Assembly: GCA_021784115.1 (NCBI GenBank)
Contig: JAJXTE010000004.1
Coordinates: 1 to 48,200, forward strand
Origin: Pseudomonadota bacterium
GTDB lineage: Bacteria > Pseudomonadota > Gammaproteobacteria > Burkholderiales > Thiobacillaceae
Length of the DNA stretch: 48,200 nucleotides
Reading direction: 5' to 3'
Translations under genes and position numbers: made by a program
Shown: piece after piece, positions 8,947 to 48,200 of the stretch
Position numbering within the stretch: position 1 is the stretch's first letter
How the letters are laid out: every line of letters starts with the position of its first letter
Notes under the pieces: model-generated
What the model saw: the letters and a program-made list of their open reading frames with translations, nothing else
The model's database searches: none
What the model was told of the DNA's origin: nothing

Positions 8947-11856
8947 TTACTGGCAGGCCTCGCATTCCTCGAAGCCAGGATCCCCCGGCCGCATCGTGCA
9001 GGCCTTGCCCTCGATCTCCGGCTCCGGCAGGTTGGCCATCGCCGCGCTCATCGCGCTGCTGCCGCCGCTGCTCATCGCCCCCGCCCCGCCGCTCGACGAC
9101 ACCGCATTCAGCTCGCCGCCCTTGCCGGTGGATTTCTCCGCCGAGGTGGCGCCCAGCGTGCGCAGGTAATACGTGGTCTTCAGCCCGCGGATCCACGCCA
9201 GCTTGTAGGTGTCGTCGAGCTTCTTGCCCGAGGCGCCGGCCATGTAGATGTTGAGGCTCTGCGCCTGGTCGATCCACTTCTGGCGGCGCGAGGCGCACTC
9301 GACCAGCCAGCTGGTTTCCATCTCGAACGCGGTGGCGTAGAGCGTGCGGATGTCGGCCGGGATGCGGTCGATCTTGGCCAGGCTGCCGTCGAAGTACTTG
9401 ATGTCGGCGACCATCACTTCGTCCCACAGGCCGAGCTTCTTCAGGTCGTTGACCAGGTACTTGTTGGCGACGGTGAATTCGCCCGACAGGTTCGATTTGA
9501 CGTAGATGTTCTGGTAGGTCGGCTCGATCGACGCGGAGACGCCGACGATGTTGGCGATGGTCGCGGTCGGCGCGATCGCCAGGCAGTTTGAGTTGCGCAT
9601 GCCGTACTGGCCGATGCGGGCACGCAGGCTGTCCCAGTCGAGCGTGCTGGAACTGTCCACTTCCAGATAGCCGCCGCGCTCTTCGGCCAGCAGTTTCAGC
9701 GAATCCTGCGGCAGGATGCCGCGGCTCCACAGGCTGCCTTCGTAGCTGGAATAGCGGCCGCGCTCTTCGGCCAATTCCGTGGACGCCCAGTAGGCCCAGT
9801 AGGCGACGGCTTCCATCGAGCGGTCGGCGAATTCCACCGCCTCGTTCGAGGCGTAGGCCACGCGCAGTTCCTGCAGCGCATCCTGGAAGCCCATGATGCC
9901 CAAGCCGACCGGACGGTGCTTGAGGTTGGAATTGCGCGCCTTGCCGACGGCGTAGTAGTTGACGTCGACCACGTTGTCGAGCATGCGCATCGCGGTGTGG
10001 ATGGTGGTCTTCAGCTTGTCGAGGTCGAGCTTGCCGTCTTTCAGATGATTGACGAGGTTGACCGAGCCGAGGTTGCACACGGCGACTTCGTGGTCGTTGG
10101 TGTTGAGCGTGATCTCGGTGCACAGGTTGGACGAGTGGACGACGCCGACGTGCTGCTGCGGGCTGCGGATGTTGCACGGGTCCTTGAACGTGATCCAGGG
10201 ATGGCCGGTCTCGAACAGCATCGACAGCATCTTGCGCCACATCTGCACGGCAGGGATGCGCTTATACAGCTTGATCTCGCCGCGGTCGGCCTTGCGCTCG
10301 TATTCGGTGTAGGCCTCGGCGAACTTGCGGCCGTAGAGGTCGTGCAGGTCGGGCACGTCGTTGGGCGAGAACAGCGTCCAGTCGCCGCCTTCCATCACAC
10401 GCTGCATGAAGAGATCCGGAATCCAGTTCGCGGTGTTCATGTCGTGGGTGCGGCGGCGGTCGTCGCCGGTGTTCTTGCGCAGGTCGAGGAATTCCTCGAT
10501 ATCGAGGTGCCAGGTTTCCAGATACGCGCACACCGCGCCCTTGCGCTTGCCGCCCTGGTTGACCGCGACGGCGGTGTCGTTGACGACCTTGAGGAAGGGC
10601 ACGACGCCCTGCGACTTGCCGTTGGTGCCCTTGATGCGGGCGCCCATGGCGCGCACCGGGGTCCAGTCGTTGCCGAGGCCGCCGGCGTACTTCTGCAGCA
10701 TGGCGTTTTCCTTGATGGCCTGGTAGATGCCGTCGAGGTCGTCGGTGACGGTGGTCAGGTAGCAGGAAGACAGCTGGCTGTGGCGGGTACCGGCGTTGAA
10801 CAGGGTCGGCGTCGAGCTCATGAAGTCGAACGAGGACAGCACCTGGTAGAACTCGATGGCGCGCGCCTCGCGGTCGATCTCGTTGATCGCCAAGCCCATC
10901 GCCACGCGCATGAAGAAGGCCTGCGGCAGTTCGATGCGCGATTCTTCGATGTGCAGGAAATAGCGGTCGTACAGGGTCTGCAGGCCGAGGTAGCCGAACT
11001 GGTAGTCGCGGCCGGCGTCGAGCACCTTGGCGAGTCGCGCGAGGTCGAACTGGCCGAGCTTCTCGTCGAGCAGTTCGGCGGCGATGCCCTTCTTGATGAA
11101 GGCGGGGAAATACTCGGCGTAGCGCTGACCCATCTGCGCCTGGGTGACGGCCTCGCCCAGCACTTCGTGGCGGATGGAATTCAGCAGCAGGCGCGCGGTG
11201 ACCAGCGAATACGCCGGGTCCTGCTCGATCATCGAGCGCGCGGCCAGCACCAGCGCCTTTTCGACTTCGGCCATCGGCACGCCGTCGTAGAGGTCGCGCA
11301 GCACGGTGTGCATGATCGGCTCGGCCTTGACGTTGTCGCCGAGGCCGGTGCAGGCGTCGGCCAGCAGGCCGGCGAGGCACGCGGTGTCGAGCGGCTTTTT
11401 CACGCCGTCCTCGATCACGTGGAGTTGGGCTTCGGGGACGCCGGCGGCCTTCTGCGCGGCGCGTTCCTGGGTGCGCTTTTCGCGGTACAGCACGTAGGAA
11501 CGTGCGACTTCATGCTCGCCCGAGCGCATCAGCGCCAGTTCGACCTGGTCCTGGATGTCCTCGATGTGGAAGGTGCCGCCGTTAGGCGCGCGCCGCAGCA
11601 GGGCCGCCGTCACCTGGCCGGTGATCGACTCGACCAGTTCGCGGATGCGCGCCGAGGCCGCCGCCTGCCCGCCCTGCACCGCGATGAAGGCCTTGGTCAC
11701 GGCGATGGCGATCTTGTTGGGCGCGAAGCCCACCACCGCGCCGTTGCGGCGGATGATCTTGTAGTCGGCGTAGCGCGTGTCAATGACCGCCACGTCGGCA
11801 GGCCCGGTGGGGGGAATGGGCGCGGATGCGGCGGATTCGGTGGCGACGTTCAGCAT
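8947..11856 (-). CDS. nrdA: Ribonucleoside-diphosphate reductase, alpha subunit
   Basis: 969 aa from the ATG at 11856, which has AAGGAG 9 nt upstream; an in-frame ATG at 11913 would add 19 residues and overlap a DnaA-box-like site just upstream. An ATP-cone regulatory domain is at the N-terminus (YKIIRRNGAVVGFAPNKIA), so overall activity should respond to dATP. The catalytic barrel shows HSQLSSCYL, NLCTEI (Asn, Cys, Glu) and VCNLGSVNL, and the C-terminus ends CEACQ, a CxxC pair for reduction by thioredoxin or glutaredoxin. It reduces ribonucleoside diphosphates with NrdB. The N-terminal 30 residues before the cone are low complexity (Ala/Pro-rich). Confidence 0.96.
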   Translation of the reverse strand: MLNVATESAASAPIPPTGPADVAVIDTRYADYKIIRRNGAVVGFAPNKIAIAVTKAFIAVQGGQAAASARIRELVESITGQVTAALLRRAPNGGTFHIEDIQDQVELALMRSGEHEVARSYVLYREKRTQERAAQKAAGVPEAQLHVIEDGVKKPLDTACLAGLLADACTGLGDNVKAEPIMHTVLRDLYDGVPMAEVEKALVLAARSMIEQDPAYSLVTARLLLNSIRHEVLGEAVTQAQMGQRYAEYFPAFIKKGIAAELLDEKLGQFDLARLAKVLDAGRDYQFGYLGLQTLYDRYFLHIEESRIELPQAFFMRVAMGLAINEIDREARAIEFYQVLSSFDFMSSTPTLFNAGTRHSQLSSCYLTTVTDDLDGIYQAIKENAMLQKYAGGLGNDWTPVRAMGARIKGTNGKSQGVVPFLKVVNDTAVAVNQGGKRKGAVCAYLETWHLDIEEFLDLRKNTGDDRRRTHDMNTANWIPDLFMQRVMEGGDWTLFSPNDVPDLHDLYGRKFAEAYTEYERKADRGEIKLYKRIPAVQMWRKMLSMLFETGHPWITFKDPCNIRSPQQHVGVVHSSNLCTEITLNTNDHEVAVCNLGSVNLVNHLKDGKLDLDKLKTTIHTAMRMLDNVVDVNYYAVGKARNSNLKHRPVGLGIMGFQDALQELRVAYASNEAVEFADRSMEAVAYWAYWASTELAEERGRYSSYEGSLWSRGILPQDSLKLLAEERGGYLEVDSSSTLDWDSLRARIGQYGMRNSNCLAIAPTATIANIVGVSASIEPTYQNIYVKSNLSGEFTVANKYLVNDLKKLGLWDEVMVADIKYFDGSLAKIDRIPADIRTLYATAFEMETSWLVECASRRQKWIDQAQSLNIYMAGASGKKLDDTYKLAWIRGLKTTYYLRTLGATSAEKSTGKGGELNAVSSSGGAGAMSSGGSSAMSAAMANLPEPEIEGKACTMRPGDPGFEECEACQ

Positions 11857-11916
11857 CGATGGGGGCTCCTTGGTGGGTGTCTCGAAAATCGGGGCGGCCG
11901 GCGTGGTGTCCACACC

Positions 11917-11925
11917 TTATGCACA
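11917..11925 (+). promoter_or_regulatory. Candidate DnaA box upstream of nrdA
   Basis: ttatgcaca matches the DnaA-box consensus TTATNCACA exactly, 61 bp before the nrdA start codon. DnaA sites are known to regulate nrdAB in E. coli. Here the role is inferred from sequence alone. Confidence 0.5.
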
Positions 11926-11950
11926 GCTTGCCCGACCCCCGCCAACAGGT

Positions 11951-11959
11951 TTATTCACA
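11951..11959 (+). promoter_or_regulatory. Second candidate DnaA box upstream of nrdA
   Basis: ttattcaca is again an exact TTATNCACA match, in the same orientation and 34 bp from the first. It overlaps the left edge of the candidate NrdR box. Confidence 0.5.
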
Positions 11960-12000
11960 ACATATTGTGGTACTGGCAGAGGCTGGATACAAATTCTAGG
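11956..12000. promoter_or_regulatory. Candidate tandem NrdR boxes upstream of nrdA
   Basis: Box 1 (11956-11969) is the near-palindrome cacaacatattgtg, with 5-bp arms CACAA/TTGTG. A weaker partner (acaaattctagg, 11989-12000) starts 32 bp from the matching point of box 1, the spacing known for paired NrdR repressor sites (about three helix turns). NrdR is the ATP/dATP-sensing repressor of reductase genes; its gene is not in the window. Confidence 0.5.
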
Positions 12001-12338
12001 TACCCAGCCCGACATGTCAACCCGGATTCGCTTTATCCGGACGACATTTTTCACGGGTGCAAAAATCCCATGGCAAATCAAGGTTTTTGCCGGACGGCAT
12101 GCCTAAAAATTGAACAGAACAGCGGAGGAATGCGGCCTGGCGCGCCGAATCGTCCGGTCGGGCCGATGAATGCGTTGAAAATCAGTTTATTAGCAGGCGT
12201 GCATGTAGTCTGACGTGCGCAAACTCTGCTGAATCTTTGCGCGGCCGGGTGCCGCGGCGAGCAGGCGCCCGCTTCCCATAAGAGGATAAGGGGAATATTG
12301 GTTATCATGGCGCAAAAAACCACAATCCAGGCCCGCCG
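12001..12338. other. Intergenic region between nrdA promoter region and purU
   Basis: About 340 bp holding divergent promoters by position. Nothing coding is seen. A short AT-rich stretch (about 12278-12305) just before purU could hold its promoter. Confidence 0.4.
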
Positions 12339-37338: not shown

Positions 37339-39489
37339 ATGAAGAAACGTATCGCAAGGGAGGGGCTGATCGTCCAATCCAGTGCCCACAAGACGCGTAT
37401 CAAGGCGCGATGCGCGGTGATGGGGCTTGCCTCGGCAAGCCTGATTTCTGCGGCAGCACTCGCCGGTGGCACGACGACGACTACAACGGGCGGGTCCGGC
37501 GATGTAACCCTGATCCAGACCGGCGACATCCATGGCCACCTGTTGCCCCGGCCTAATTTGCGCAGTGACGCGCTGGGCTACAGAGGCGTCAGCATCGAAG
37601 GCGGTGTGGCGCGCATGTACACCGTCATCAGGGCTCTCCGCGCCTTGGCAACAACGAAAGATGGGGTGGACCGTTCGCTCCTGCTTAATACTGGCGATAC
37701 CGTGCAGGGTTCCGGCGAGGCGCTGTTCAGCCGCGGCCAGGCGATGATCGATGTGTTGAATTCCTTTGGTTTTGTGGCGCATGCCCCCGGCAACTGGGAT
37801 TTCCTGTATGGGCCGGCCCGCTTCGAGGAAACCTTCAAGGGTTCCGCGACCGCCAAGCCGCTGGCGAACTGGAATGCTCTGGCATCCAACCTCTATTACA
37901 CCAACCAGTTTGACGACACTGCCGTCTGCGGCATCACGGCAACGGATCCCGCCACCGGCGCGGTGCGTCCGCTCAAGCGCGTTCTGCCGACCTACATGAT
38001 CAAAAAGGTCGGCAACGTGAAGGTGGGCATCGTCGGCTTCACCACGGCCCGTGCCATTGCCGCGGTCGGCACCAGCGTCACCCAGAACTACAAGTTCACC
38101 GACGGCAAGACCGAAGTGCCCTGCTACGTCGACAGGCTGCGTAACGTCGAGAAGGTCGACGTGGTCGTGATGATGTCGGAGATGGAAATGTCCCGCGACG
38201 TGCAGATTGCCGAGACGCTCTCCCCCGCTCCGGACGTGATCCTGAACTCGGACATGCACGAGCGCACCACCTCCCCGATCGACGTTGCACACGCCGATGG
38301 CAGCCACACCCTGATCGTCGAGGAAGGCCAGGACGGCACCGTGGTTGGAAACCTCAAGCTGTCGGTCAAGAACGGCAAGATCGCTGACTGGAGCTTCAAG
38401 CAGATTGTTGTGGCCGAAGGGATTCCGGAGGACAGGACGATTGCCGCCAAGGTGGCCAAGGCCCGCGCACCTTTTGTTAAGGGAACCTTCGTGCCTGGCC
38501 AGAAAGTGACGGTCGGTGGCAACACCACCGAACTGCTGCGCCCGGTGGATGAGACCATCGCCTTCACAGAGGTGGACCTGCACCGCTCCAACTTCGTGGA
38601 TGAGGACATGCCCGGGGTGGTCGAGGGGACTTCGCACGACCTGATCGCCGACGCCATGGCTGCCATTGGCCAGGCCCAGTCGGCGTCCATCCGCGGGTTC
38701 CGCTATGGTACCCACGTCCCGGCAGGCTGGCCCATCACCATGGAGGACATCTATCACTACATCCCCATCGGAGCCAAGCTGGGTCGCACCAACAAGGCCT
38801 GCGGCGCCGACCTGAAGTTCGCGATCGAGCAATCGATCGGTGGCACCTTCCATCCCGATCCCGCCCAGTGGACCGGTGGCTGGATGTTCGGCTACAGCGG
38901 CCTGAACTACGACGTCGACGGTTGCAACGGCTTCACGGGCGCCACCCCGGTGAATCCGACGCCACTGACCTTTGCCGATCGCTACCGGCCCTGGAGCACC
39001 GCCCGCGGCACCAACATCAAGGTCAAAGGCGTTCCCATCGACGACCTCGACATTTATGACAACCGCGCCACCATCAACGGCGTAGCCAACCCGACCTTCC
39101 AGAGCTGCCTGTCTGGTGATGGCACCAACACGCCCCACGGCGGGTATACGGTCACCGGCTACTGGTATGCGGATGATCCGACCACCATCAACAACTGCAA
39201 CCCGTGCCGGGGTCGCACGATCCAGGTCGTGAAGACGGATGGCAGCATCGTCCAGGTCGCCGGCCCTGGCGCACCCGCCACGCTGCCCCCAAGCGAAGAG
39301 TTGATGGATATCAGCGAGGCAGTGGTCCAGTACCTGCGTGTAAACCTGGGTGGAACGGTGACCGCAGCCAACCTGCCGATCCACCGCCTCACGGTGAAGC
39401 GGCTGCCGACCATCAACCCCCCCGGCTATAACTTCAAGATGATTCAGCCGGTCAAGGGTGCCTCATCGGCCACCTGCCCCGCGCTGTAG
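37339..39489 (+). CDS. Secreted SoxB/5'-nucleotidase-family protein with altered metal-site residues
   Basis: 716 aa; strong AGGAGGAGA ribosome site. A long basic N-region and hydrophobic core (about 25-43) form a signal peptide, followed by a Thr-rich linker. The calcineurin-like domain has QTGDIHGHL (D63, H65), NTGDTVQGSGEAL (D120) and GNWDF (N152), close to SoxB/5'-nucleotidase. However, the region matching SoxB LSHNG reads MSEMEM (E281) and the one matching GGHTHD reads NSDMHE (D305, H307), so one His ligand is lost and one is changed. The C-terminal half (FRYGTHVPAGWPITMED, FHPDPAQWTGGWMFGYSGLN) clearly resembles SoxB, with extra Cys-rich inserts near the end. Probably not a standard thiosulfohydrolase. 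It stands alone. Confidence 0.8.
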   Translation: MKKRIAREGLIVQSSAHKTRIKARCAVMGLASASLISAAALAGGTTTTTTGGSGDVTLIQTGDIHGHLLPRPNLRSDALGYRGVSIEGGVARMYTVIRALRALATTKDGVDRSLLLNTGDTVQGSGEALFSRGQAMIDVLNSFGFVAHAPGNWDFLYGPARFEETFKGSATAKPLANWNALASNLYYTNQFDDTAVCGITATDPATGAVRPLKRVLPTYMIKKVGNVKVGIVGFTTARAIAAVGTSVTQNYKFTDGKTEVPCYVDRLRNVEKVDVVVMMSEMEMSRDVQIAETLSPAPDVILNSDMHERTTSPIDVAHADGSHTLIVEEGQDGTVVGNLKLSVKNGKIADWSFKQIVVAEGIPEDRTIAAKVAKARAPFVKGTFVPGQKVTVGGNTTELLRPVDETIAFTEVDLHRSNFVDEDMPGVVEGTSHDLIADAMAAIGQAQSASIRGFRYGTHVPAGWPITMEDIYHYIPIGAKLGRTNKACGADLKFAIEQSIGGTFHPDPAQWTGGWMFGYSGLNYDVDGCNGFTGATPVNPTPLTFADRYRPWSTARGTNIKVKGVPIDDLDIYDNRATINGVANPTFQSCLSGDGTNTPHGGYTVTGYWYADDPTTINNCNPCRGRTIQVVKTDGSIVQVAGPGAPATLPPSEELMDISEAVVQYLRVNLGGTVTAANLPIHRLTVKRLPTINPPGYNFKMIQPVKGASSATCPAL

Positions 39490-39679: not shown

Positions 39680-40681
39680 ATGCACCTTTCCCTCACACCC
39701 AAGCCCCCCGCGCTCACCACACTCCAGGAAAGCGTCGCCCATCAGCGGGATGCACTGGCCAACTTGCTGCGCGAACCGTTGGCGCTGGCGGCGCAGGCAT
39801 GCAGCCGCGTCTGGCCCAGCCGCGCCGGCCTCAATGCGGCGCTGACGCACGCGCTGGCGGGCCTGCCCGCCTGCAAATACATGTATGCGCTGGACACCGG
39901 GGCGCTTCAGCTCAGCGACAACATCAGCCACGCCGGGCTGGTCGAGACCGACTACGAACGCGACCGCTCCGACCGCCCCTACATGAACGAGGCGGTTCCG
40001 AACCAGGGCTTCCTGCTGTCGCAGGCCTACATCAGCCTGCGCGCCAAGCGGCCGTCGCTCACCGCCATCCAGATCGTGCGCGACGACGACGGCCGCGTAC
40101 TCGGCTTCGTCGGTGCTGATTTCGACCTGCGCGACCTGCCGATCACCGCCAGGCTGTACGACGAACCCACCTACTGGCGGCAGATCAAGGGCGATCCGGC
40201 GATCCGCGGCGCGGTGTTTCACCAGACCCGCAGCGACAGCCAGATGGACCTGAACCTCGACACCGTGCTGGGGGTGATCGAAGAACTGATGACCGATCGC
40301 GGCATCTTCCACGGCAAGCTGCATTTTTCCAGCAGCCGCGCCACGGTCTGGCTGGTCGACGATCCCTATCGCTACCGGCTGCTGGATATCGACGCGCTGA
40401 CCGATCCCGACACCTGCCTGAGCTATCCGCGCCGTCCTTATCCGGGCGACGCCGTGGTGCCGAAGGACAAGATCCGGCCGGTTCTGGACAACCTGCGCGC
40501 GCTGCGCTTCATGGACGAGACGTTTTACCTGCGTGCCGGTTCGATCAACATCTTCAACGGCATGGTCGGCCTCACTTTCTCGTGCGACGGATCGCACTAT
40601 CTGCCGTGGGACGAGTTTCTGAGCAAGGGCTATGACTTCTGGGCGGCGAGCAATCCGGCAGGACCGATCTGCCCGGTCTGA
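39680..40681 (+). CDS. PDC-sensor (Cache-like) domain protein, stand-alone
   Basis: 333 aa. Contains a PDC/Cache-type sensor region (about 60-180) with YERDRSDRPYMNEAVPNQGF, typical of the ligand-binding fold, and FVGADFDLRDLP. No membrane segment, kinase, GGDEF or MCP output is attached, so it would be a soluble cytosolic binding or adaptor protein. No clear ribosome site before the ATG at 39680. Its last 45 codons are duplicated at 47876-48009. Confidence 0.7.
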   Translation: MHLSLTPKPPALTTLQESVAHQRDALANLLREPLALAAQACSRVWPSRAGLNAALTHALAGLPACKYMYALDTGALQLSDNISHAGLVETDYERDRSDRPYMNEAVPNQGFLLSQAYISLRAKRPSLTAIQIVRDDDGRVLGFVGADFDLRDLPITARLYDEPTYWRQIKGDPAIRGAVFHQTRSDSQMDLNLDTVLGVIEELMTDRGIFHGKLHFSSSRATVWLVDDPYRYRLLDIDALTDPDTCLSYPRRPYPGDAVVPKDKIRPVLDNLRALRFMDETFYLRAGSINIFNGMVGLTFSCDGSHYLPWDEFLSKGYDFWAASNPAGPICPV

Positions 40682-40872
40682 GGAAACGATCCAAGGTGCA
40701 AGCGGTGCGCTTCGGGCTCAACTGTCTGGCGGCAGACCTCTCCCGTGCCAGTACGCGTAGGCTACCGGAATCAGGATCAGCGACAGAAGGGCGGCCGAGA
40801 CCATGCCGCCGACCAGCGGCGCAGCGATGCGCTTCATCACGTCCGCCCCGGCCCCTTGGCTGAACAGGACCG
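40548..40872. repeat. Left copy of a 325-bp+ direct repeat (7,328-bp duplication unit)
   Basis: Matches 47876-48200 with only two differences seen: 40668 T versus 47996 G, and 40745 G versus 48073 A. It contains the 3' end of the PDC gene and the 3' end of cusA. The right copy runs off the window. Confidence 0.9.
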
Positions 40873-43831
40873 GCAGCAGGCCGCCGATGATGACGGAGAC
40901 GGTCATGATCTTGGGGCGGATGCGCAGCAAGGCCCCTTCCACGATGGCCTGATGCAAGGATGCGCGGTCTTTCAAGGTTCCAGTGCGGCGAAAGCGGTCG
41001 ATCGCGTTGTCCAGATACAGCAGCATGACCACGCCGAACTCGGCCGCCACGCCAGCGAGCGCGATGAAACCGACGGCCACGGCCACCGAAAACGGGTAAC
41101 CCAGGGCATAGACGAGCCAGAAGCCTCCCACGAGCGCCAGCGGCAGGCAGGCCATCACCAGCATGACCTTGCCGACGTGACGGAAGTGCAGATACAGCAG
41201 CAGGAGCACCATCACGAGGGTGAGCGGCACTGCCCAGCGCAGCCTTTCCTTCGCGTGCTGCAGGTGCACGTATTGGCCGGTCCATTCGATGGCGTAGCCC
41301 GGCGGAAACTTGACGGATCGTTCCACCGCCGCCCGGGCCGTGGCAACGTAGCCGCCGAGGTCGCCGCTTGAAATGTCGACATAGACATAGCCGACGAGCC
41401 GCCCATTCTCGCTTTTGATCTCGGCGGGCCCGTCGGCGATGCTCAGTTTGGCGATTTCGCCCAGCGGCACCTGCATGCCGGCCGGCGTGGTGACCCGGCT
41501 CGCGGCCAAGGTGTCAAGCGAGTCGCGGTAGCCGCGCGGATAGCGCAGATTGATGGGATAACGCTCGCGCCCGTCGATGATTATGCCGACATTCTCGCCG
41601 CCGATCGCGGTACGCACCAGGTTCTGCACATCCGCGATGCTCACTCCGTAGCGCGCGGCCTGGGCGCGATCCACGTCGATGTCGATGTAGCGCCCACTGG
41701 TCACGCGCTCGGCGAATACCGTCCGCGTGCCCGGCACTTCCTTGACCGCCGCTTCGATCCTTTGCGCAAGGTCGACGATCCCGGAAAGCTCAGGACCGGT
41801 GACCTTGACGCCGACCGCGGTTCGCACGCCAGTGGACAGCATGTCGATCCGGGTGCGGACGGGATAGCCCCACGAGTTGGTCAGGCCCGGCAGGCTGACG
41901 TTCTGGTCCAGTTTGTGGATGAAGTCCTCAATGGTTTCGCCGTCCGGCCACTGGTCGCGCGGCTTCAGCCGGATGATGGTCTCCAGCATGGAAAGCGGTG
42001 CCGAGTCGGTAGCGGTGTCGGCGCGCCCGGCCTTGCCGAACACGCGGTCGACTTCCGGCATGGTCCGGATCAGCCGGTCGGCAATCTGCAGCACGTTGGC
42101 CGCCTCGTCGATGGACAAGCCAGGCAGCGTGGTGGGCATATACAGGAGGTCGCCTTCATAGAGCGGCGGCATGAATTCGCTGCCGGTTCTGTCCACCGGC
42201 CATGCGATGCTGGCGAACGCAAGCACGGAGATCAGCAGCGTAGTCCTGGGCCGCCGCAGTGCCAGCAGCAACAGCGGCCGGTACAGCCGGTGCAGAATGC
42301 GGTTAACCGGATTGCTGATTTCCGGGGCGATGCGCCCGCGTGTCAGGTAGCCCATCAATACCGGTGTAAGCGTCACCGACAGCGCAGCGCTTGCGGCCAT
42401 GGCATAGGTCTTGGTGTAGGCAAGTGGCGCGAACAGTTTCCCTTCCTGGCCGGTAAGGGTAAGCACGGGCAGAAAGGAAACGGTGATGACCAGCAGCGAG
42501 AAGAACAGTGCGGGGCCAACTTCCACCGCGCTCCTGCGCGCCACTTCCCAATAGTCGATGTTTTCGTCTGCGTGCTCCAGTTGCTTGTGCATGTTCTCGA
42601 CCATGACGATAGCGGCGTCGACCATGGCGCCGATGGCGATGGCGATGCCGCCCAGCGACATGATGTTGGCAGTGACGCCCTGGGCCTTCATCGTGATGAA
42701 GGCAGCGAGGATGCCAAGCGGCAGGGTTACCACGGCCACTAAAGAAGACCGCAGATGCAGCAGGAAGATCAGGCAGACGAGGGCGACGACAAGCGACTCT
42801 TCCACCAGCTTGGTTTCCAGGGTCCGGATGGCGCGCCCGATCAGGCCGGAGCGGTCGTAGGTGGTGATCAGTTCGACACCCGGCGGCAGTCCTTTCTTGA
42901 GTTCCTGCAAACGCTGCTTGACCCGTTGCACGGTTTCCAGCGCGTTCTCGCCGTAGCGCATGACCACGATGCCGCCGGTCACCTCGCCTTCGCCATCAAG
43001 GTCTGTCACGCCACGACGCGCTTCCGGGCCGGTCTGGATATGCGCCACGTCGCCCAGCCGGACCGGCACGCCCCGGGCGTCGCGGGCAAGCGGAATGGTG
43101 GCGAAATCCTGCACGGATTCGAGATGGGCGCGCATGCGCACCATGTACTCGGCGTGACCCATTTCCATCACCGCCCCGCCGGTCTCGGCATTGTTGGCGC
43201 GCACCGCGTCCTCGACCTTCTGCAGGCTCAATCCGTAGCGCGCCAGGCGGTTGGGGTCCACCTCAACCTGGAACTGCCGCACCATGCCGCCGACGCTGGC
43301 CACCTCGGCCACGCCCGGCACGCCTTGCAGTTCGTATTTCAGGAAAAAATCCTGTACCGCACGCAACTGATCGGGATTGTATCGGTGCCCGCGATCGACC
43401 AGCGCGTATTCGAACACCCAGCCCACGCCGGAAGCATCGGGGCCCAGCGTCGGCCTCACCCCTGCGGGCAGTTGCGGCTGCGCCTGGGCGAGAGCCTCCA
43501 GCACCCGGCTGCGCGCCCAGTAGGGGTCGGTACCGTCCTCGAAGACGACATAGATGAAGGACTCGCCGAACATGGAGAAACCACGCACCGCAGTGGATTT
43601 CGGCACCGAAAGCAAGGCGCTGGCGAGCGGGTAGCCCACCTGGGCTTCCACCGTCTGCGGCGACTGCCCGGGGTAGGGGGTCTTGATGATGACCTGGACG
43701 TCGGACAGGTCGGGAATGGCATCGAGCGCCATGTGGCGCGCGCTGTAAGCGCCCCAGGCGGCGAGCAGACAGGCGGCCAGCAGCACCAGCACGCGGTTGC
43801 GCAGCGACCACTCAATCAGGCGGGCAATCAT
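40718..43831 (-). CDS. cusA: Heavy-metal efflux RND pump, CusA-like
   Basis: 1037 aa inner-membrane proton-driven pump. It shows the CusA-group signatures GIAIAIGAMVDAAIVMVENM, and LPGLSIDEA plus RIDMLSTGVRTAVGVKV. Two of the periplasmic Met positions known in E. coli CusA are visible (LLYM, IDML), while the RYGM position is Val here (from-memory alignment). Exports Cu+/Ag+ from the periplasm through an outer-membrane partner. It starts 14 nt after cusB and no cusC is in the window. The 3' end is in the duplicated segment. Confidence 0.9.
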   Translation of the reverse strand: MIARLIEWSLRNRVLVLLAACLLAAWGAYSARHMALDAIPDLSDVQVIIKTPYPGQSPQTVEAQVGYPLASALLSVPKSTAVRGFSMFGESFIYVVFEDGTDPYWARSRVLEALAQAQPQLPAGVRPTLGPDASGVGWVFEYALVDRGHRYNPDQLRAVQDFFLKYELQGVPGVAEVASVGGMVRQFQVEVDPNRLARYGLSLQKVEDAVRANNAETGGAVMEMGHAEYMVRMRAHLESVQDFATIPLARDARGVPVRLGDVAHIQTGPEARRGVTDLDGEGEVTGGIVVMRYGENALETVQRVKQRLQELKKGLPPGVELITTYDRSGLIGRAIRTLETKLVEESLVVALVCLIFLLHLRSSLVAVVTLPLGILAAFITMKAQGVTANIMSLGGIAIAIGAMVDAAIVMVENMHKQLEHADENIDYWEVARRSAVEVGPALFFSLLVITVSFLPVLTLTGQEGKLFAPLAYTKTYAMAASAALSVTLTPVLMGYLTRGRIAPEISNPVNRILHRLYRPLLLLALRRPRTTLLISVLAFASIAWPVDRTGSEFMPPLYEGDLLYMPTTLPGLSIDEAANVLQIADRLIRTMPEVDRVFGKAGRADTATDSAPLSMLETIIRLKPRDQWPDGETIEDFIHKLDQNVSLPGLTNSWGYPVRTRIDMLSTGVRTAVGVKVTGPELSGIVDLAQRIEAAVKEVPGTRTVFAERVTSGRYIDIDVDRAQAARYGVSIADVQNLVRTAIGGENVGIIIDGRERYPINLRYPRGYRDSLDTLAASRVTTPAGMQVPLGEIAKLSIADGPAEIKSENGRLVGYVYVDISSGDLGGYVATARAAVERSVKFPPGYAIEWTGQYVHLQHAKERLRWAVPLTLVMVLLLLYLHFRHVGKVMLVMACLPLALVGGFWLVYALGYPFSVAVAVGFIALAGVAAEFGVVMLLYLDNAIDRFRRTGTLKDRASLHQAIVEGALLRIRPKIMTVSVIIGGLLPVLFSQGAGADVMKRIAAPLVGGMVSAALLSLILIPVAYAYWHGRGLPPDS

Positions 43832-43845
43832 CCGCGGTCCGGCCC

Positions 43846-45210
43846 TCAGGGAGGCGGCGCTTCGGCGGCATGCATGCGCTGCGCGGCATCGTTGATCGAC
43901 GCCGCGGCGTCCAGCAGGAACTGGCCATTGACCGCCACCTGGGCACCCGCCGCAAGCCCGTCGCGGATGGCGATGCGCTCCCCGTCCTCGATGCCGGCAA
44001 CCACCCTGACCGGCATGAAATGCCCCGCGCCCATCGCGCGCATCACGAAATCGCCGCGCCCGGTCCGCATCACCGCAGTGTTTGGCACCGCCAATACCCG
44101 ATGCGGCGTGGCATGGATGACCACTTTGGCATATTCGCCCAGATTGGGCGCGCGTTTCAGGGCCACCGGCATGCGCACCCGCAGCGTATTTGTGGCGTCA
44201 TCCAGCAGGGGATTGAGCCCGGAGAGGTGCGCGGCAACCGTCTCGCCGTCATCGAACGCCATCGTGACGGCATCGCCCTCCGCCACCCAGGAAAGCTGAT
44301 CCGGATACAGCACGATTTCGATCTGGGCGTGCGAAGCATCGACGCAATGCAGGATCTCGGTCATATTCCCCACGGTCATGCCCGGCCGCGCCATCACCTG
44401 CTGCACCACGCAGGCCCGCTGCGCGCGCACCGGCACCGTGACGACGGCCTTTTCGGTGCGTTCGATCTGCGCCAGCATGACGTCGGTAAACCCGATTTGC
44501 CGCAAACGCAGTTTCAGCCGCTCGCGATCGCGCTCCCATGGCTGCAACAGCGACAATAGTTGCTCTTCGCTCTGTCGGACCGCTCGTTCAAGCTGCGCGC
44601 GTGCGGCCGGCTCCAGGTCGCGCGCGTTTTCCAGCTTGACCCGATTCTGTTCGCGCCGCTCCTCAGCCATTTTCATGGTCGGCTTTCCACGGCGCATGAT
44701 GTCGACGTATTCGTACTGCAGATTGAGGATGTCCGGAGAACTGATCTCGTAAATAACCTCGCCGCGGCTTACCCGCTGACCGATCCGGTTCACATTCAGT
44801 TTGGTCAGCAGCCCTTCCACATTGGGCGTGATGCGTAGTTCCGCGTCCTCGTCAGGCACCAGGGTGCCGTAGGTGACAATGTCACGGGCAAGCATGGCGG
44901 GCTTCGCGACGGCGAGTTGTACGCCGAGCCGGTACTGGGTCGCGGTGTCGACATGAATCTGGCTTGTTGCGGCGCCGGCAGCGTCCTTCATTTTCACCAG
45001 GTCCATGCCACAAATCGGGCAGGTGCCCGGGTTGTCCTGGACGATGTGCGGGTGCATGGGACAGACGTAGGTCGCATGCCCTGCCGTCTTGCCTGGCTGT
45101 ACCGAAATCGCTTCGAGAACGGGCGGGGATGAAGCTTGCCCGCGCCCGAGGAAAAATGCGGCCGCCCCGACCACCAGCGCGACCAGCAAGGGAAAGACCG
45201 CTTTTTTCAT
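43846..45210 (-). CDS. cusB: Efflux RND adaptor with heavy-metal binding domain, CusB-like
   Basis: 454 aa from the ATG at 45210, which opens a signal/anchor helix (MKKAVFPLLVALVVGAAAFF); an upstream ATG at 45285 adds a region without a signal and is rejected. Directly after the helix comes a heavy-metal-binding motif (YVCPMHPHI ... CPICGMDL), then the HlyD-type barrel-sandwich, a long helical hairpin (about residues 185-245) and the membrane-proximal domains. It links CusA to the outer-membrane channel and hands over Cu+. Between the MCO gene and cusA. Confidence 0.9.
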   Translation of the reverse strand: MKKAVFPLLVALVVGAAAFFLGRGQASSPPVLEAISVQPGKTAGHATYVCPMHPHIVQDNPGTCPICGMDLVKMKDAAGAATSQIHVDTATQYRLGVQLAVAKPAMLARDIVTYGTLVPDEDAELRITPNVEGLLTKLNVNRIGQRVSRGEVIYEISSPDILNLQYEYVDIMRRGKPTMKMAEERREQNRVKLENARDLEPAARAQLERAVRQSEEQLLSLLQPWERDRERLKLRLRQIGFTDVMLAQIERTEKAVVTVPVRAQRACVVQQVMARPGMTVGNMTEILHCVDASHAQIEIVLYPDQLSWVAEGDAVTMAFDDGETVAAHLSGLNPLLDDATNTLRVRMPVALKRAPNLGEYAKVVIHATPHRVLAVPNTAVMRTGRGDFVMRAMGAGHFMPVRVVAGIEDGERIAIRDGLAAGAQVAVNGQFLLDAAASINDAAQRMHAAEAPPP

Positions 45211-45288
45211 GTCGGATCGGAACCGGGAAACCCGTGGGCACGTGCAGGCGCAGAAAAAGGAGGGCAGAGCCCTCCTGCTGTGCAACCG

Positions 45289-46290
45289 TCAGGTCACGTT
45301 GATGCGCGTCTTCGCCGTCCCCAACACCGCCCCCGTGCGCCAGTGCAGATACTGGATGCTCACCGTCCAGATGCCGGTGCTGGTCGGCTTGATGATGCAG
45401 TCATAGCGCTCGGCCGAATGCGCCTCGATGGCGCCGGTGTTCCAGGCCGCAGGCAAGGGCCGGCCGTCGGAGGCCACCACGCTGGCGATCAACCCGCCAA
45501 AGCTGATTTTCTGCGGATAGAAACCGGCACAGATGTAGCGCACCAGCAAGGTCTGTCCCAGCTTCATGTTCACTGCCACGGCCGGGTTGGTCAGCGCCGA
45601 ACTCGCGCCATCCACACCGGTGATGATGAAATACCTCGGATTGAGGTTGTTCAATCCGACATCGCCGCCGCAGGTACCGGCATACCACGGCAGGGTATGC
45701 CAGGCTGGATCGATCTCGTCGCAGGCCCAGATGGCTTCGACATCATATGTGGGGCCGTTGTAGAAAGCACGCTTGGTACCCGCGGGATCGCCAGGCGTTG
45801 GTTTGGGGTCGACGATCAACGCCCCATACATGCCCATTTCCGCATGCAGCGGCGTATTCACATGGCAATGATAGAAGTAGGTGCCTGCATGCTGGGGACG
45901 CCACTGATAGGTATACGTGCCGTTGTACACATCCCAGGACAGATGGCCCACGCCGTCGTTCTCGGTGCTGGGTTCGATGCCGTGATGGTGGATGGTGTGC
46001 ATCCACATCATGTTCACAGACAGCGAGGTATGCACGATCTGCCCTTCGGTGACGCGTATCGCCGGCGAAGGAAAGGAACCGCCACCCATCTGATCGCCGC
46101 CGCCACCACCACCACCACCGGCGGCCAGATCGGTAAAGCCCCAGATCGTCACCGACTTGCCGTCATCAAAGGTCATCGAGCCATTCATGTAGATGCCGCG
46201 CTGGAACAGCACATCGGGCGTCACAAACCCGGGCGTCGCCGGCGCCCCCGGATACACATAACACGCGTTGCCGTTACCATTCGTGCTCAT
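45289..46290 (-). CDS. Multicopper oxidase-like protein with a type-1 copper site, no signal peptide
   Basis: 333 aa; GAGGAG lies 7 nt before the ATG, so the start is solid. The N-terminus (MSTNGNGNACYVYPG) has no signal sequence. First cupredoxin domain: HTIHHHGIEP gives the trinuclear-site histidines; then, after a Gly9 linker region earlier (GGGGGGGGG, about residues 58-66), HAGTYFYHCHVNTPLHAEMGM supplies Cys, His and Met of a type-1 copper. The second half (VNMKLGQTLLVRYICAGFYP, VVASDGRPLP) is a cupredoxin domain without metal residues. It lies 18 nt after the Tat-exported partner and probably needs it for export. Predicted periplasmic. Confidence 0.8.
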   Translation of the reverse strand: MSTNGNGNACYVYPGAPATPGFVTPDVLFQRGIYMNGSMTFDDGKSVTIWGFTDLAAGGGGGGGGDQMGGGSFPSPAIRVTEGQIVHTSLSVNMMWMHTIHHHGIEPSTENDGVGHLSWDVYNGTYTYQWRPQHAGTYFYHCHVNTPLHAEMGMYGALIVDPKPTPGDPAGTKRAFYNGPTYDVEAIWACDEIDPAWHTLPWYAGTCGGDVGLNNLNPRYFIITGVDGASSALTNPAVAVNMKLGQTLLVRYICAGFYPQKISFGGLIASVVASDGRPLPAAWNTGAIEAHSAERYDCIIKPTSTGIWTVSIQYLHWRTGAVLGTAKTRINVT

Positions 46291-46308
46291 GTCGATCTCC
46301 TCGATTGC

Positions 46309-47331
46309 TTATTTGAATACGATGTCGGTCATTGCTCCGAACAGGTACAAGCCGCCCCCCGCCGTCTGCGACATCTCGTCGTGCAGATGCATCGGGAAGT
46401 GGCCGGTTGTCACGGGGGGATAGGCATCAGGCGGCGCCTCGAACGGATAGATGGCGTCGATCTTGCCGAGCTGGTTGCGGAGATACAGAACATCCTTTTT
46501 CCAGACAGAGGGGCGCACCGTGCCGCGGTCGGTCAGCCATTCCATATGGTTGGCATGGGTATGGACGGCATGGGAGCACATGCCGGCGTTCAGCATGCGG
46601 ACCAGGGTGCGGTCGCCCACACTGCCCGCGAGTTGGGTCTCGGGATTGGCCATCGCATCCTTGGTCGGATCGTCAAACCCTACCGCCCCTGGAGGCAGGG
46701 AAGTCTGGCCATTGATGGTGAAATAGCGCGGAGTGAGACTGGTGGGCACCGCGGTGCCGTTCTGTACCGCGTTGTTCAACGCCGGATCGATGTCGTTGAA
46801 CACCCAGAACAGCTGTTTCACGAACGTCGGACTGCCGGAATAAAGCTGATTGCTGCTCCCGGCCGGCATGATCGCCAGCCCGCCATGCAGGCCGAGGAAC
46901 ACGTTGTAGCTGGTCTTGTTGTCGTAGAACAGGTAGGAACCCGCCTTGCCGGTCGGAATGGTGTAGGTGATGGTCTTGCTGCCGCCGCCGGCGATGTCGC
47001 CACTGCTGACCAGCGGCGGGTCGCCCGCCTTGAGGCCGCCGATCACGAAGTTGTGGGTCACTGCGAGCCGGTTGATGATGGTGATCTGCAGGGTGTCGCC
47101 TTCCTGGCAGATGATCGGCGTAGCCGGCACGTTGAGGTCGGCTGACGAATCGCTGAATCCCTTGACGTAGATCGACACGCCGTCCGGCATGGTTTGCGTG
47201 CCGGCGGTGATATACAAGGTCTTGTTGATGGTCGCCGCCTCCGCACGCGGCGCCCATGACAGCAGGCCGGTCCCCGTCATCAGGCTGGCAAACCCGGCCG
47301 TTCCGGCCTTCAAGAATCCTCTTCGCTCCAT
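46309..47331 (-). CDS. Tat-exported multicopper oxidase-like protein, partner of the next gene
   Basis: 340 aa from the ATG at 47331 with GGAGAAGG upstream; the twin-arginine motif RRGFLK at residues 3-8 precedes a hydrophobic stretch, so it is a folded Tat substrate. Two cupredoxin domains are seen. The first (DTLQITIINRLAVTHNFVIG, GSYLFYDNKTSYNVFLGLHG) has lost the usual His pair; the second keeps CSHAVHTHANHMEWL and HFPMHLHDEM, histidine clusters like the domain-3 copper sites of laccases, but no type-1 Cys. With the neighbour it would reconstitute one multicopper active site. A longer ORF to 47424 has no support. Confidence 0.8.
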   Translation of the reverse strand: MERRGFLKAGTAGFASLMTGTGLLSWAPRAEAATINKTLYITAGTQTMPDGVSIYVKGFSDSSADLNVPATPIICQEGDTLQITIINRLAVTHNFVIGGLKAGDPPLVSSGDIAGGGSKTITYTIPTGKAGSYLFYDNKTSYNVFLGLHGGLAIMPAGSSNQLYSGSPTFVKQLFWVFNDIDPALNNAVQNGTAVPTSLTPRYFTINGQTSLPPGAVGFDDPTKDAMANPETQLAGSVGDRTLVRMLNAGMCSHAVHTHANHMEWLTDRGTVRPSVWKKDVLYLRNQLGKIDAIYPFEAPPDAYPPVTTGHFPMHLHDEMSQTAGGGLYLFGAMTDIVFK

Positions 47332-47875
47332 ACGCCTTCTCCTATTTCTCCTGGCATGACACCGACTCGGAATTGCAGGGGCAAATGCCCCGCGGCGATT
47401 GCCGATCAGCCGTGCTGAATGCAATCGCTAGAGGGGGTCCCGGAAGGGACAGATCAAGAGGGAAGACGCGCTGGGATGCTCTGGGAAAGCTGCCGCATTG
47501 GCGGCATTGCGCAAATAGGGCCGTCTTCACTCGGCAAAATTCTTGTTGTTTGCTGTTGTTATGATTAAGCCGGTTTATCAGCGGATAAATTGTTTCCCTC
47601 GGAGACTTGGCTGACCATGGTTAATTCAGACCACCATGATGAACCACTTTACAAATCCGCCCAGCAGGGTCGTGCCCGAGAAGCCCAAAGCCCTCATGCC
47701 AATCTGCCGCTGATCAGCAACAAAGGGCACCCTCATCGCGATGATCACGGTGGCGCTGATGTCGCCCGTCTTCAGAGGCGTCGGGCCGGTCAAATAATGC
47801 TGGCCAGATGGCCATCCTGATCGTGGCGATCGCCGAGGGCGACGCGGACATCGACCGGTGTCCGTAGTGCGCCGA
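47332..47875. other. Region upstream of the MCO operon up to the duplication junction
   Basis: About 540 bp with no clear gene. 47530-47580 is AT-rich and may hold the operon promoter. From about 47590 to 47875 the sequence has fragments with coding-like character on both strands (a minus-strand open frame over 47626-47925 crosses the junction, so it is not an intact gene). It looks like remnants near the duplication boundary. Confidence 0.5.
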
Positions 47876-48009
47876 ACATCTTCAACGGCATGGTCGGCCT
47901 CACTTTCTCGTGCGACGGATCGCACTATCTGCCGTGGGACGAGTTTCTGAGCAAGGGCTATGACTTCTGGGCGGCGAGCAATCCGGCAGGACCGAGCTGC
48001 CCGGTCTGA
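47876..48009 (+). pseudogene. 3' fragment of the PDC-sensor gene (duplicated)
   Basis: Encodes the last 44 codons of the PDC-sensor protein, in frame to the same TGA, with one substitution (Ile to Ser near the C-terminus). It has no start, no 5' part and no ribosome site, because the duplication begins inside the gene. Confidence 0.85.
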
Positions 48010-48045
48010 GGAAACGATCCAAGGTGCAAGCGGTGCGCTTCGGGC

Positions 48046-48200
48046 TCAACTGTCTGGCGGCAGACCTCTCCCATGCCAGTACGCGTAGGCTACCGGAATC
48101 AGGATCAGCGACAGAAGGGCGGCCGAGACCATGCCGCCGACCAGCGGCGCAGCGATGCGCTTCATCACGTCCGCCCCGGCCCCTTGGCTGAACAGGACCG
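48046..48200 (-). CDS. Second CusA-like gene, C-terminal end only (window edge)
   Basis: The minus strand repeats the last 51 codons of cusA with the same stop codon; the one difference is silent or near-silent by position (48073). The rest of the gene lies to the right of the window. A complete second copy cannot be shown from here. Confidence 0.75.

What the first reader, a model, noticed from the sequence alone, without database searches (positions are those of the whole stretch)
40548..48200. Tandem duplication of the copper operon with a 7,328-bp repeat unit
Seen: 47876-48200 copies 40548-40872 with two differences, so the unit 40548-47875 (end of PDC gene, cusA, cusB, both MCO-like genes) is followed by the start of a second copy. 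Inference: recent gene amplification, which often follows metal stress, or a collapsed/unresolved assembly. The two differences argue against a simple assembly overlap.
Basis: partly seen in the sequence, partly recalled or inferred. Interest (0 to 1): 0.75.

Follow-up and report, generated by a model that had tools for sequence, protein, structure and literature searches.

The report
Copper cassette between duplicated gene ends
In a Thiobacillus draft genome, a copper-export gene cluster sits between two near-identical copies of the tail of the gene next door, and the assembly loops back into it, so it is probably present in tandem copies that recombination can add or remove.

Summary
The repeat is real: 47875-48200 matches 40547-40872 over 326 bases with two mismatches. 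The window is one whole contig of a 155-contig Thiobacillus draft. It stops exactly 127 bases after the last mismatch, and contig C40 starts with exactly 127 bases of the repeat (47883-48009), then runs into nsrR-norZ-rnf. Both fit a k=127 de Bruijn graph in which the copper cluster is entered twice. A tandem copy is the best reading, though no reads or depth were available.

The unit's first 134 bases are the 3' end of a Cache-sensor gene (PDC); its last 155 bases are a decayed rnfA/rnfB remnant. So the cusA-cusB-MCO-MCO cassette lies between PDC and a PDC 3'-end copy, which C40 joins to nsrR. PDC|rnf is an insertion hotspot across 52 other Thiobacillus genomes; two of them show the same signature (new cargo, PDC 3' copy, older cargo). 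One relative has a single copper copy at this site without the repeat.

Verdict: observation confirmed, interpretation partly supported; 'recent' and 'metal stress' are not shown. Proposed mechanism: additive insertion at PDC, then copy-number change by homologous recombination between the PDC ends, a known kind of process.

The parts
39680..40681 (+). PDC gene: 333-aa Cache-domain sensor-like protein; left anchor of the locus in the genus
   Evidence: Pfam dCache_1, E 2e-6, below its cut-off; homologues of 69-91% identity in 52 of 55 other genus genomes
40548..40681 (+). First direct repeat: last 134 bases of PDC including its stop; carries T at 40668 (Ile where the relatives with this tail have Ser)
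   Evidence: C40 diverges right after the stop
40718..43831 (-). cusA, Cu/Ag-type RND efflux pump
   Evidence: TIGR00914 1208 bits, cut-off 701; E. coli CusA structures 1239 bits
43846..45210 (-). cusB-type periplasmic adaptor with heavy-metal-binding domain (an upstream start at 45285 is possible)
   Evidence: Pfam HlyD_D23, HMBD; CusB-specific NF007303 below cut-off
45289..46290 (-). multicopper-oxidase-like gene 1
   Evidence: Pfam Cu-oxidase_3/_2; nearest solved chain 3g5w multicopper oxidase, E 1e-20
46309..47331 (-). multicopper-oxidase-like gene 2 (an upstream start at 47424 is possible)
   Evidence: Pfam Cu-oxidase_3, E 3e-5; no solved homologue at E 0.001
47721..47875 (+). decayed remnant of the rnfA 3' end and parts of rnfB, ending at the join
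   Evidence: blastn to rnfA/rnfB of relatives, 47723-47832 and 47822-47875; 73.5% to own rnf, 80.6% to G005
47875..47876 (.). join point rnfB' | PDC'
   Evidence: sequence comparison; no clear microhomology by eye
47876..48009 (+). Second direct repeat: copy of the PDC 3' end (G at 47996); its last 127 bases are also the start of contig C40, there followed by nsrR-norZ-rnfABC
48010..48200 (-). start of the second copy of the copper cassette (end of cusA, synonymous A at 48073), cut by the contig end
48074..48200 (.). 127-mer identical to 40746-40872, where the assembly graph would merge and the contig stops

Best explanation
A 7.2-kb copper cassette (cusA, cusB and two multicopper-oxidase-like genes, plus an rnfA/B scar) is inserted in a Thiobacillus hotspot directly after the PDC gene. 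It is flanked by direct repeats of the last 134 bases of PDC. At least part of the population carries two or more head-to-tail copies, each with its own upstream region and separated by a PDC 3'-end copy. The array ends at nsrR-norZ-rnf (contig C40). Proposed working: DNA carrying a PDC 3' end plus cargo entered by a single (additive) crossover at PDC, which left PDC intact and displaced the old 3' end with the old neighbour. The repeats then let homologous recombination duplicate, delete or circularise the cassette, which changes copper-export gene dose. Shown: the repeat, the rnf scar, the PDC'-nsrR junction in C40, the 127-base contig geometry, the hotspot and two parallel cases. Inferred: copy number, array order, RecA dependence, the additive crossover and the dosage effect.
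For: Repeat with 2 differences in 325. Contig end exactly 127 bases after the last mismatch and C40 overlap of exactly 127 bases. A one-molecule model with two copies gives four unitigs whose ends match both contigs. Apart from C128 itself, only C40 (127 b) matched the window's right end strongly; the other hits listed were 49 b or shorter, E 0.008 or worse (40 of 77 candidates scored). A DNA search with C40's rnf block found no second rnf in the draft (40 of 179 candidates scored). G016 has a single copper cassette at the same place, alignable through the PDC|cusA side, with no PDC copy or rnf scar found. In 10 of 52 other genomes nsrR is the first marker after PDC, 35-85 bases on; on the same measure C40 has 51. 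Same signature in G009 (PDC - 5.6 kb cargo - PDC' - WYL-type fragment/cas9; PDC' and downstream align contiguously with the PDC-WYL junction of G076 and G062) and in G018 (PDC followed by the same WYL-type flank on one contig; CRISPR repeat - PDC' - kup - rnf on another). The rnf scar is closest to G005/G060/G016; 23 of 35 other genomes score higher than the genome's own rnf, so a duplication of the present rnf is unlikely. Tandem amplification by recombination between flanking repeats is established in E. coli (PMC12892994, passages).
Against: No reads, no depth, nothing right of 48200. Both copy-2 bases look ancestral, as in a second, less derived strain; models with two strains give the same C40 start and the same merge. 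The rnf scar is far more decayed than the PDC copy beside it, which a single insertion event does not explain without later exchange between PDC ends. The place of C40 to the right of C128 is inferred from a 127-base overlap only. That a k=127 assembler was used is inferred from two lengths. In G018 PDC and PDC' are on different contigs, so their order is inferred.
Confidence: 0.58

Rival explanations
1. Strain mixture without tandem copies: one strain has PDC(T)-Cu-PDC'-nsrR, another has PDC(G)-Cu(A); the assembler wrongly walked from the first strain's PDC' into the second strain's cusA.
For: Copy-2 alleles both look ancestral; the shared 134-base PDC end is longer than 127, so the graph mixes the paths; simulated unitigs show the same C40 start and the same merge at the contig end.
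Against: The contig's own path 47875-PDC'-cusA would then have no supporting molecule; needs an assembler error plus two strains. Low contamination estimate for the draft (0.01), which however does not measure strain variation.
Confidence: 0.18
2. Tandem strain plus an empty-site strain: the array is real, but C40 is the PDC-nsrR junction of cells that lack the copper cassette.
For: C40's PDC-to-nsrR spacing lies within the range of 10 relatives without the cassette; simulated graph fits.
Against: No second rnf locus was found in the draft, and the simpler single-molecule model already explains C40.
Confidence: 0.12
3. Ordinary in-place tandem duplication: a segment from PDC to rnfB of the same chromosome was duplicated by illegitimate joining, then one rnf copy decayed.
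For: The join is rnfB' to PDC' with no clear microhomology, like the non-homologous joins of yeast CUP1 arrays (PMC4232551, abstract and introduction).
Against: The rnf scar is less like the genome's own rnf (73.5%) than like that of 23 of 35 other genomes, one tying; nsrR-norZ is missing before the scar; PDC'-nsrR in C40 would need a second, exactly placed deletion.
Confidence: 0.09
4. Integrase-driven island whose attachment site is the PDC 3' end, with a circular form giving the loop.
For: PDC stays intact and its 3' end is repeated on the far side, as with islands at gene 3' ends (recalled).
Against: No integrase among the four genes of the unit; the left edges of the PDC' homology differ between the window, G009 and G018, though decay blurs them; a circle cut from this copy would carry G, not A, at the cusA site.
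Confidence: 0.03

Closest known systems
Tandem amplification by homologous recombination between flanking direct repeats in bacteria (PMC12892994, passages seen)
   Same: Resistance-type genes between direct repeats; the repeat is also found between units; copy number expected to rise and fall.
   Different: Repeats here are a gene 3' end, 134 bases, not IS or rRNA copies; copy number and RecA dependence untested.
Hotspots of horizontal transfer without integrases, exchanged by recombination at flanking core genes (Oliveira et al. 2017, PMC5635113, passages seen)
   Same: Conserved flanks (PDC, rnf), variable cargo; no recombinase in the window's unit.
   Different: Their proposed mechanism is double recombination at the flanks; here the new cargo seems added and one flank is partly duplicated (3 genomes).
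CUP1 copper-resistance arrays of yeast (PMC4232551, abstract and introduction)
   Same: Copper gene in tandem units with a non-homologous join.
   Different: Eukaryote, metallothionein; arrays compared across natural isolates there.
Transformation-made tandem duplications in Streptococcus pneumoniae (PMC3784515, passages)
   Same: Incoming DNA with a repeated segment can create tandem duplications.
   Different: The repeat-borne ones reported there span about 100-900 kb; here 7.3 kb, and DNA uptake is not shown.
Single-copy copper cassette of Thiobacillus sp. 0-1251 (MKWL01000001, G016/L056)
   Same: Same four genes, same order, same site after PDC, 83% nucleotide identity over a 7.7-kb alignment.
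   Different: No PDC copy, no rnf scar, no second copy found.

Membership tests
Tandem gene amplification unit flanked by direct repeats | Two or more head-to-tail copies in one molecule | tested here: inconclusive
   Contig re-enters the cassette for 191 bases and stops at the graph merge; no reads
Tandem gene amplification unit flanked by direct repeats | Direct repeats at both borders of the unit | tested here: met
   134-base PDC 3' end at 40548-40681 and 47876-48009, one difference
Tandem gene amplification unit flanked by direct repeats | Raised read depth | not testable with these tools
   No reads or coverage values are held
Tandem gene amplification unit flanked by direct repeats | Formation depends on RecA | not testable with these tools
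   Needs a culture and a recA mutant
Integrase-free horizontal-transfer hotspot | Conserved flanking genes across the group | tested here: met
   PDC in 52 of 55 other genus genomes; rnfA downstream in 38 of 52 fetched stretches, two more further out
Integrase-free horizontal-transfer hotspot | Different cargo in different genomes | tested here: met
   Of 52: 17 none, 10 nsrR, 1 copper, 4 kup, 7 cas3-like, 1 cas9, 6 other extra sequence before rnfA, 6 undecided
Integrase-free horizontal-transfer hotspot | Raised recombination in the flanking core genes | not tested
   No recombination rates were estimated
Integrase-free horizontal-transfer hotspot | No integrase in the cargo | tested here: inconclusive
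   Met for the four genes of the window's unit; cargo of the other genomes was not scanned against a family library
Integrative element at a gene 3' end | Site-specific recombinase in the element | tested here: not met
   The four genes are cusA, cusB and two multicopper-oxidase-like genes
Integrative element at a gene 3' end | Same crossover core in every case | tested here: inconclusive
   PDC' homology starts at different places in the window, G009 and G018; decay blurs the edges
CusCBA copper/silver efflux system | CusA-type pump | tested here: met
   TIGR00914 above cut-off; CusA chains best by far; the methionines that I recall as the Cu site lie in aligned stretches and are identical
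CusCBA copper/silver efflux system | CusB adaptor at the specific model's cut-off | tested here: not met
   NF007303 86 bits against 390; general HlyD_D23 and HMBD met
CusCBA copper/silver efflux system | CusC outer-membrane channel in the operon | tested here: not met
   The unit holds four genes and none is such a channel; the rest of the genome was not searched for one

The most novel reading that the evidence does not exclude
The 3' end of the PDC gene is a reusable docking site in Thiobacillus. Incoming cargo repeatedly arrives linked to a PDC 3' end, is added without loss of the older cargo, leaves a PDC 3' copy at the border, and thereby becomes an amplifiable and removable unit without any integrase or IS.
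Probability: 0.25. Interest if true: 0.6.

Novelty: new member of a known kind. Interest (0 to 1): 0.4.

Why it matters
If true, an environmental Thiobacillus can tune copper-export dose by recombination between two ordinary gene ends, with no mobile element. The hotspot gives a concrete way to see how integrase-free cargo accumulates: each added cargo would leave a copy of the flank's end. It is also a reminder that contig ends in short-read genomes can be read as graph evidence for hidden tandem copies.

Tried and rejected
Simple end-to-end overlap of a circular molecule: rejected because the overlap has two mismatches and lies inside the contig, not at its other end; the left end of the contig had only weak hits elsewhere, E 0.0066 or worse.

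Duplication of the genome's own rnf as source of the scar: disfavoured. Plasmid origin of the cassette: 6 plasmid records matched MCO gene 2, all under 32% identity. Copper cassette always at PDC: no; of 34 loci related to MCO gene 2, only L056 (= G016) showed PDC or rnf within the fetched stretch (some loci are short or end inside the gene, and the own genome may be left out of that listing).

The G001 remnant (C71, 61% protein identity) lies on another contig than G001's PDC and rnf and may come from a paralogue; not counted as a case. Papers: searches. None of the titles and abstract starts listed describes this locus; the search Thiobacillus + rnfA + hotspot returned no paper. This is no proof that nothing is in print.

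A wider test of k=127 with 20 other contig starts was prepared but not run; k=127 rests on two exact lengths.

Full report
WHAT WAS CLAIMED AND WHAT IS THERE. This is exact: 325 bases, two mismatches, offset 7,328; BLASTN extends one base left. The other self-matches listed are 28-44 bases long. The window is the complete contig C128 of a draft genome of 2.23 Mb in 155 contigs, 91.3% complete, 0.01 contamination. G016, which the tool places in the window's genus, has a contig of the same length as MKWL01000001, 'Thiobacillus sp. 0-1251'; this is how I name the genus.

THE CONTIG END IS INFORMATIVE. The last mismatch lies at repeat position 198 and the contig ends at position 325, i.e. exactly 127 identical bases later. 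Contig C40 starts with exactly 127 bases identical to 47883-48009, then diverges at the first base after the PDC stop codon. Two exact 127s point to a de Bruijn assembly with k = 127 (that assemblers use this k is recalled). In that graph a contig tends to stop where it runs back into a k-mer already used. Apart from C128 itself, the own-genome search with 47000-48200 found only C40 as a strong match; the other hits listed were 49 bases or shorter with E 0.008 or worse (40 of 77 candidates scored). So the second copy most likely goes on into the copper operon. I simulated three arrangements, forward strand only. Two copies in one molecule, ending at C40, give four unitigs, and C128 (from 38001 on) is a legal walk through three of them. 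Two strains with one copy each, or a tandem strain plus an empty-site strain, give seven unitigs, with the same C40 start and the same merge. In the model with two single-copy strains the walk 47875 - PDC' - cusA, which the contig shows, exists in no molecule.

ANATOMY OF THE UNIT. From left to right: PDC 3' end (134 bases with stop), then on the minus strand cusA, cusB, MCO-like 1 and MCO-like 2 (read from right to left), then an upstream region, then 155 bases of decayed rnfA 3' end and rnfB, then the join at 47875|47876 to a PDC 3' end. cusA passes the CusA/CzcA model (1208 bits, cut-off 701) and its best solved relatives are E. coli CusA. cusB has the heavy-metal-binding and HlyD_D23 domains but falls short of the CusB-specific model. 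MCO-like 1 resembles small multicopper oxidases; MCO-like 2 has no solved relative at E 0.001.

C40. It begins inside the PDC 3' end (base G), followed about 45 bases after the stop by the end of an nsrR-type Rrf2 regulator (the NsrR and RirA models score alike, both below cut-off), a NorB-type nitric oxide reductase and rnfA, rnfB, rnfC. A DNA search with its rnf block found no second rnf in the draft (a very different copy would be missed, and the draft is 91% complete). The simplest order is PDC - copper - rnf scar - PDC' - [copper - rnf scar - PDC']n - nsrR - norZ - rnf.

THE LOCUS IN THE GENUS. 52 of 55 other genus genomes hold a PDC gene (cut by a contig end in G022). G007, G014 and G031 show only a paralogue-like or weak match, which in incomplete drafts is no proof of absence. 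I read downstream of PDC in all 52 (the stretch was as short as 193 bases where a contig ended). rnfA directly after PDC (within 200 bases): 17. nsrR first after PDC: 10 (8 with norZ). Copper cassette: 1 (G016). kup: 4. cas3-like match: 7. cas9: 1. Other extra sequence before rnfA (0.6-2.2 kb): 6. None of the markers in the stretch: 6. In G009 and G032 rnfA was found about 16 and 14 kb further on. A CRISPR repeat (35 bases, up to 5 mismatches) occurs 14-42 times in the stretches of G032, G034, G010, G004 and G062, once in G027 and once in G018. So PDC|rnf is a hotspot of gene gain and loss.

THE SAME SIGNATURE ELSEWHERE. Besides the window, two of 52 genomes carry a PDC 3' copy that I could place in this locus. 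G009: PDC, 5.6 kb of other cargo, PDC', then a WYL-type fragment and cas9. Its PDC' and downstream flank align contiguously with the intact PDC-WYL junction of G076 (80% over 400 columns) and G062 (70% over 391). So the older junction seems kept and the newer cargo added in front of it. G018: its PDC runs into the same WYL-type flank on one contig that ends 352 bases after the gene; another contig starts with one CRISPR repeat, then PDC', kup and rnf. The order PDC - CRISPR - PDC' - kup is inferred across that gap. G016, with the same copper cassette at the same place, has neither PDC' nor scar by these searches. A further remnant in G001 is elsewhere and was not counted. In most genomes no PDC' was found.

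AGE AND ORIGIN. At both differing positions the second copy looks ancestral. G016 has G and A; for the cusA site G016 is the only outgroup compared. Five of 18 relatives compared have the SCPV protein tail, and none has the Ile. The change in PDC is Ser to Ile; that in cusA is synonymous. The PDC ends differ by 1 in 134. The rnf scar is 70-81% identical to 36 intact rnf sequences (35 genomes and C40; only those whose rnf lay in a fetched stretch). Its best matches are G005, G060 and G016 (80-81%); own rnf has 73.5%, with 23 genomes above it and one level, although own rnf and G016 rnf are 90% alike over the same columns (155 columns, the last few of doubtful homology). The scar therefore probably comes from another lineage, and is older than the near-identity of the PDC ends suggests. 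Either the PDC copy is newer than the scar, or the two PDC ends have been exchanged since. Frequent exchange is what a living array or repeated pop-out would give, but this is inference. The cassette is 83% identical to that of G016, about as much as the neighbouring nsrR-rnf block (85%), so it is not a fresh import from that relative.

MECHANISM. Best supported: an additive crossover at the PDC 3' end set the copper cassette between two PDC ends, and homologous recombination between these ends makes and loses further copies. The unit carries no integrase. That flanking direct repeats drive tandem amplification through homologous recombination in bacteria is established (PMC12892994, passages). 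Hotspots without integrases and with frequent recombination at flanking core genes are described (PMC5635113, passages). Transformation can create tandem duplications through repeated segments (PMC3784515, passages). What differs here is that cargo seems added, with part of a flank duplicated, in three genomes of one genus.

WHAT IS NOT SHOWN. Copy number, the sequence right of 48200, whether one cell holds both junctions of PDC', any effect on copper tolerance, and any tie to metal stress. A strain mixture remains possible at about one in five.

VERDICT. A real repeat, probably a real tandem array, explained by a gene-end direct repeat at a genus-wide hotspot. The kind of process is known; the docking pattern at PDC is the part worth following.

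Noticed in passing
PDC-rnf interval in 52 Thiobacillus genomes (L036-L041, L043-L053, L055, L092-L125): Hotspot with very different cargo: nsrR-norZ, kup, cas3-like or cas9 CRISPR systems, copper cassette, and by eye a PEP-CTERM-like protein in L040. Eight of 52 have a cas3-like or cas9 match downstream of PDC.
   Followed up: partly
L052 (reverse complement) 11813-12260; L054 1-370: PDC 3' copies next to older cargo in G009 and G018, parallel to the window.
   Followed up: yes
L042 9467-9643 (G001:C71): Another PDC-like 3' fragment (61% protein identity) near a contig end, on a different contig from G001's PDC and rnf; possibly from a paralogue.
   Followed up: partly
window 45289-47331 and loci L056-L089: The two multicopper-oxidase-like genes stand side by side in 30 of 34 loci; cusB follows directly in the 12 nearest, L056-L067, so the pair may be the older unit (some loci are cut by contig ends).
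   Followed up: no
L117 1100-1190 (G027): A single CRISPR repeat and a WYL-like fragment between PDC and kup look like the scar of a lost CRISPR system.
   Followed up: no
window 37339-39489: A 716-aa protein with a 5'-nucleotidase C-terminal domain sits between the HAD gene and PDC; among the 18 PDC loci compared only G011 and G021 also have it there.
   Followed up: no
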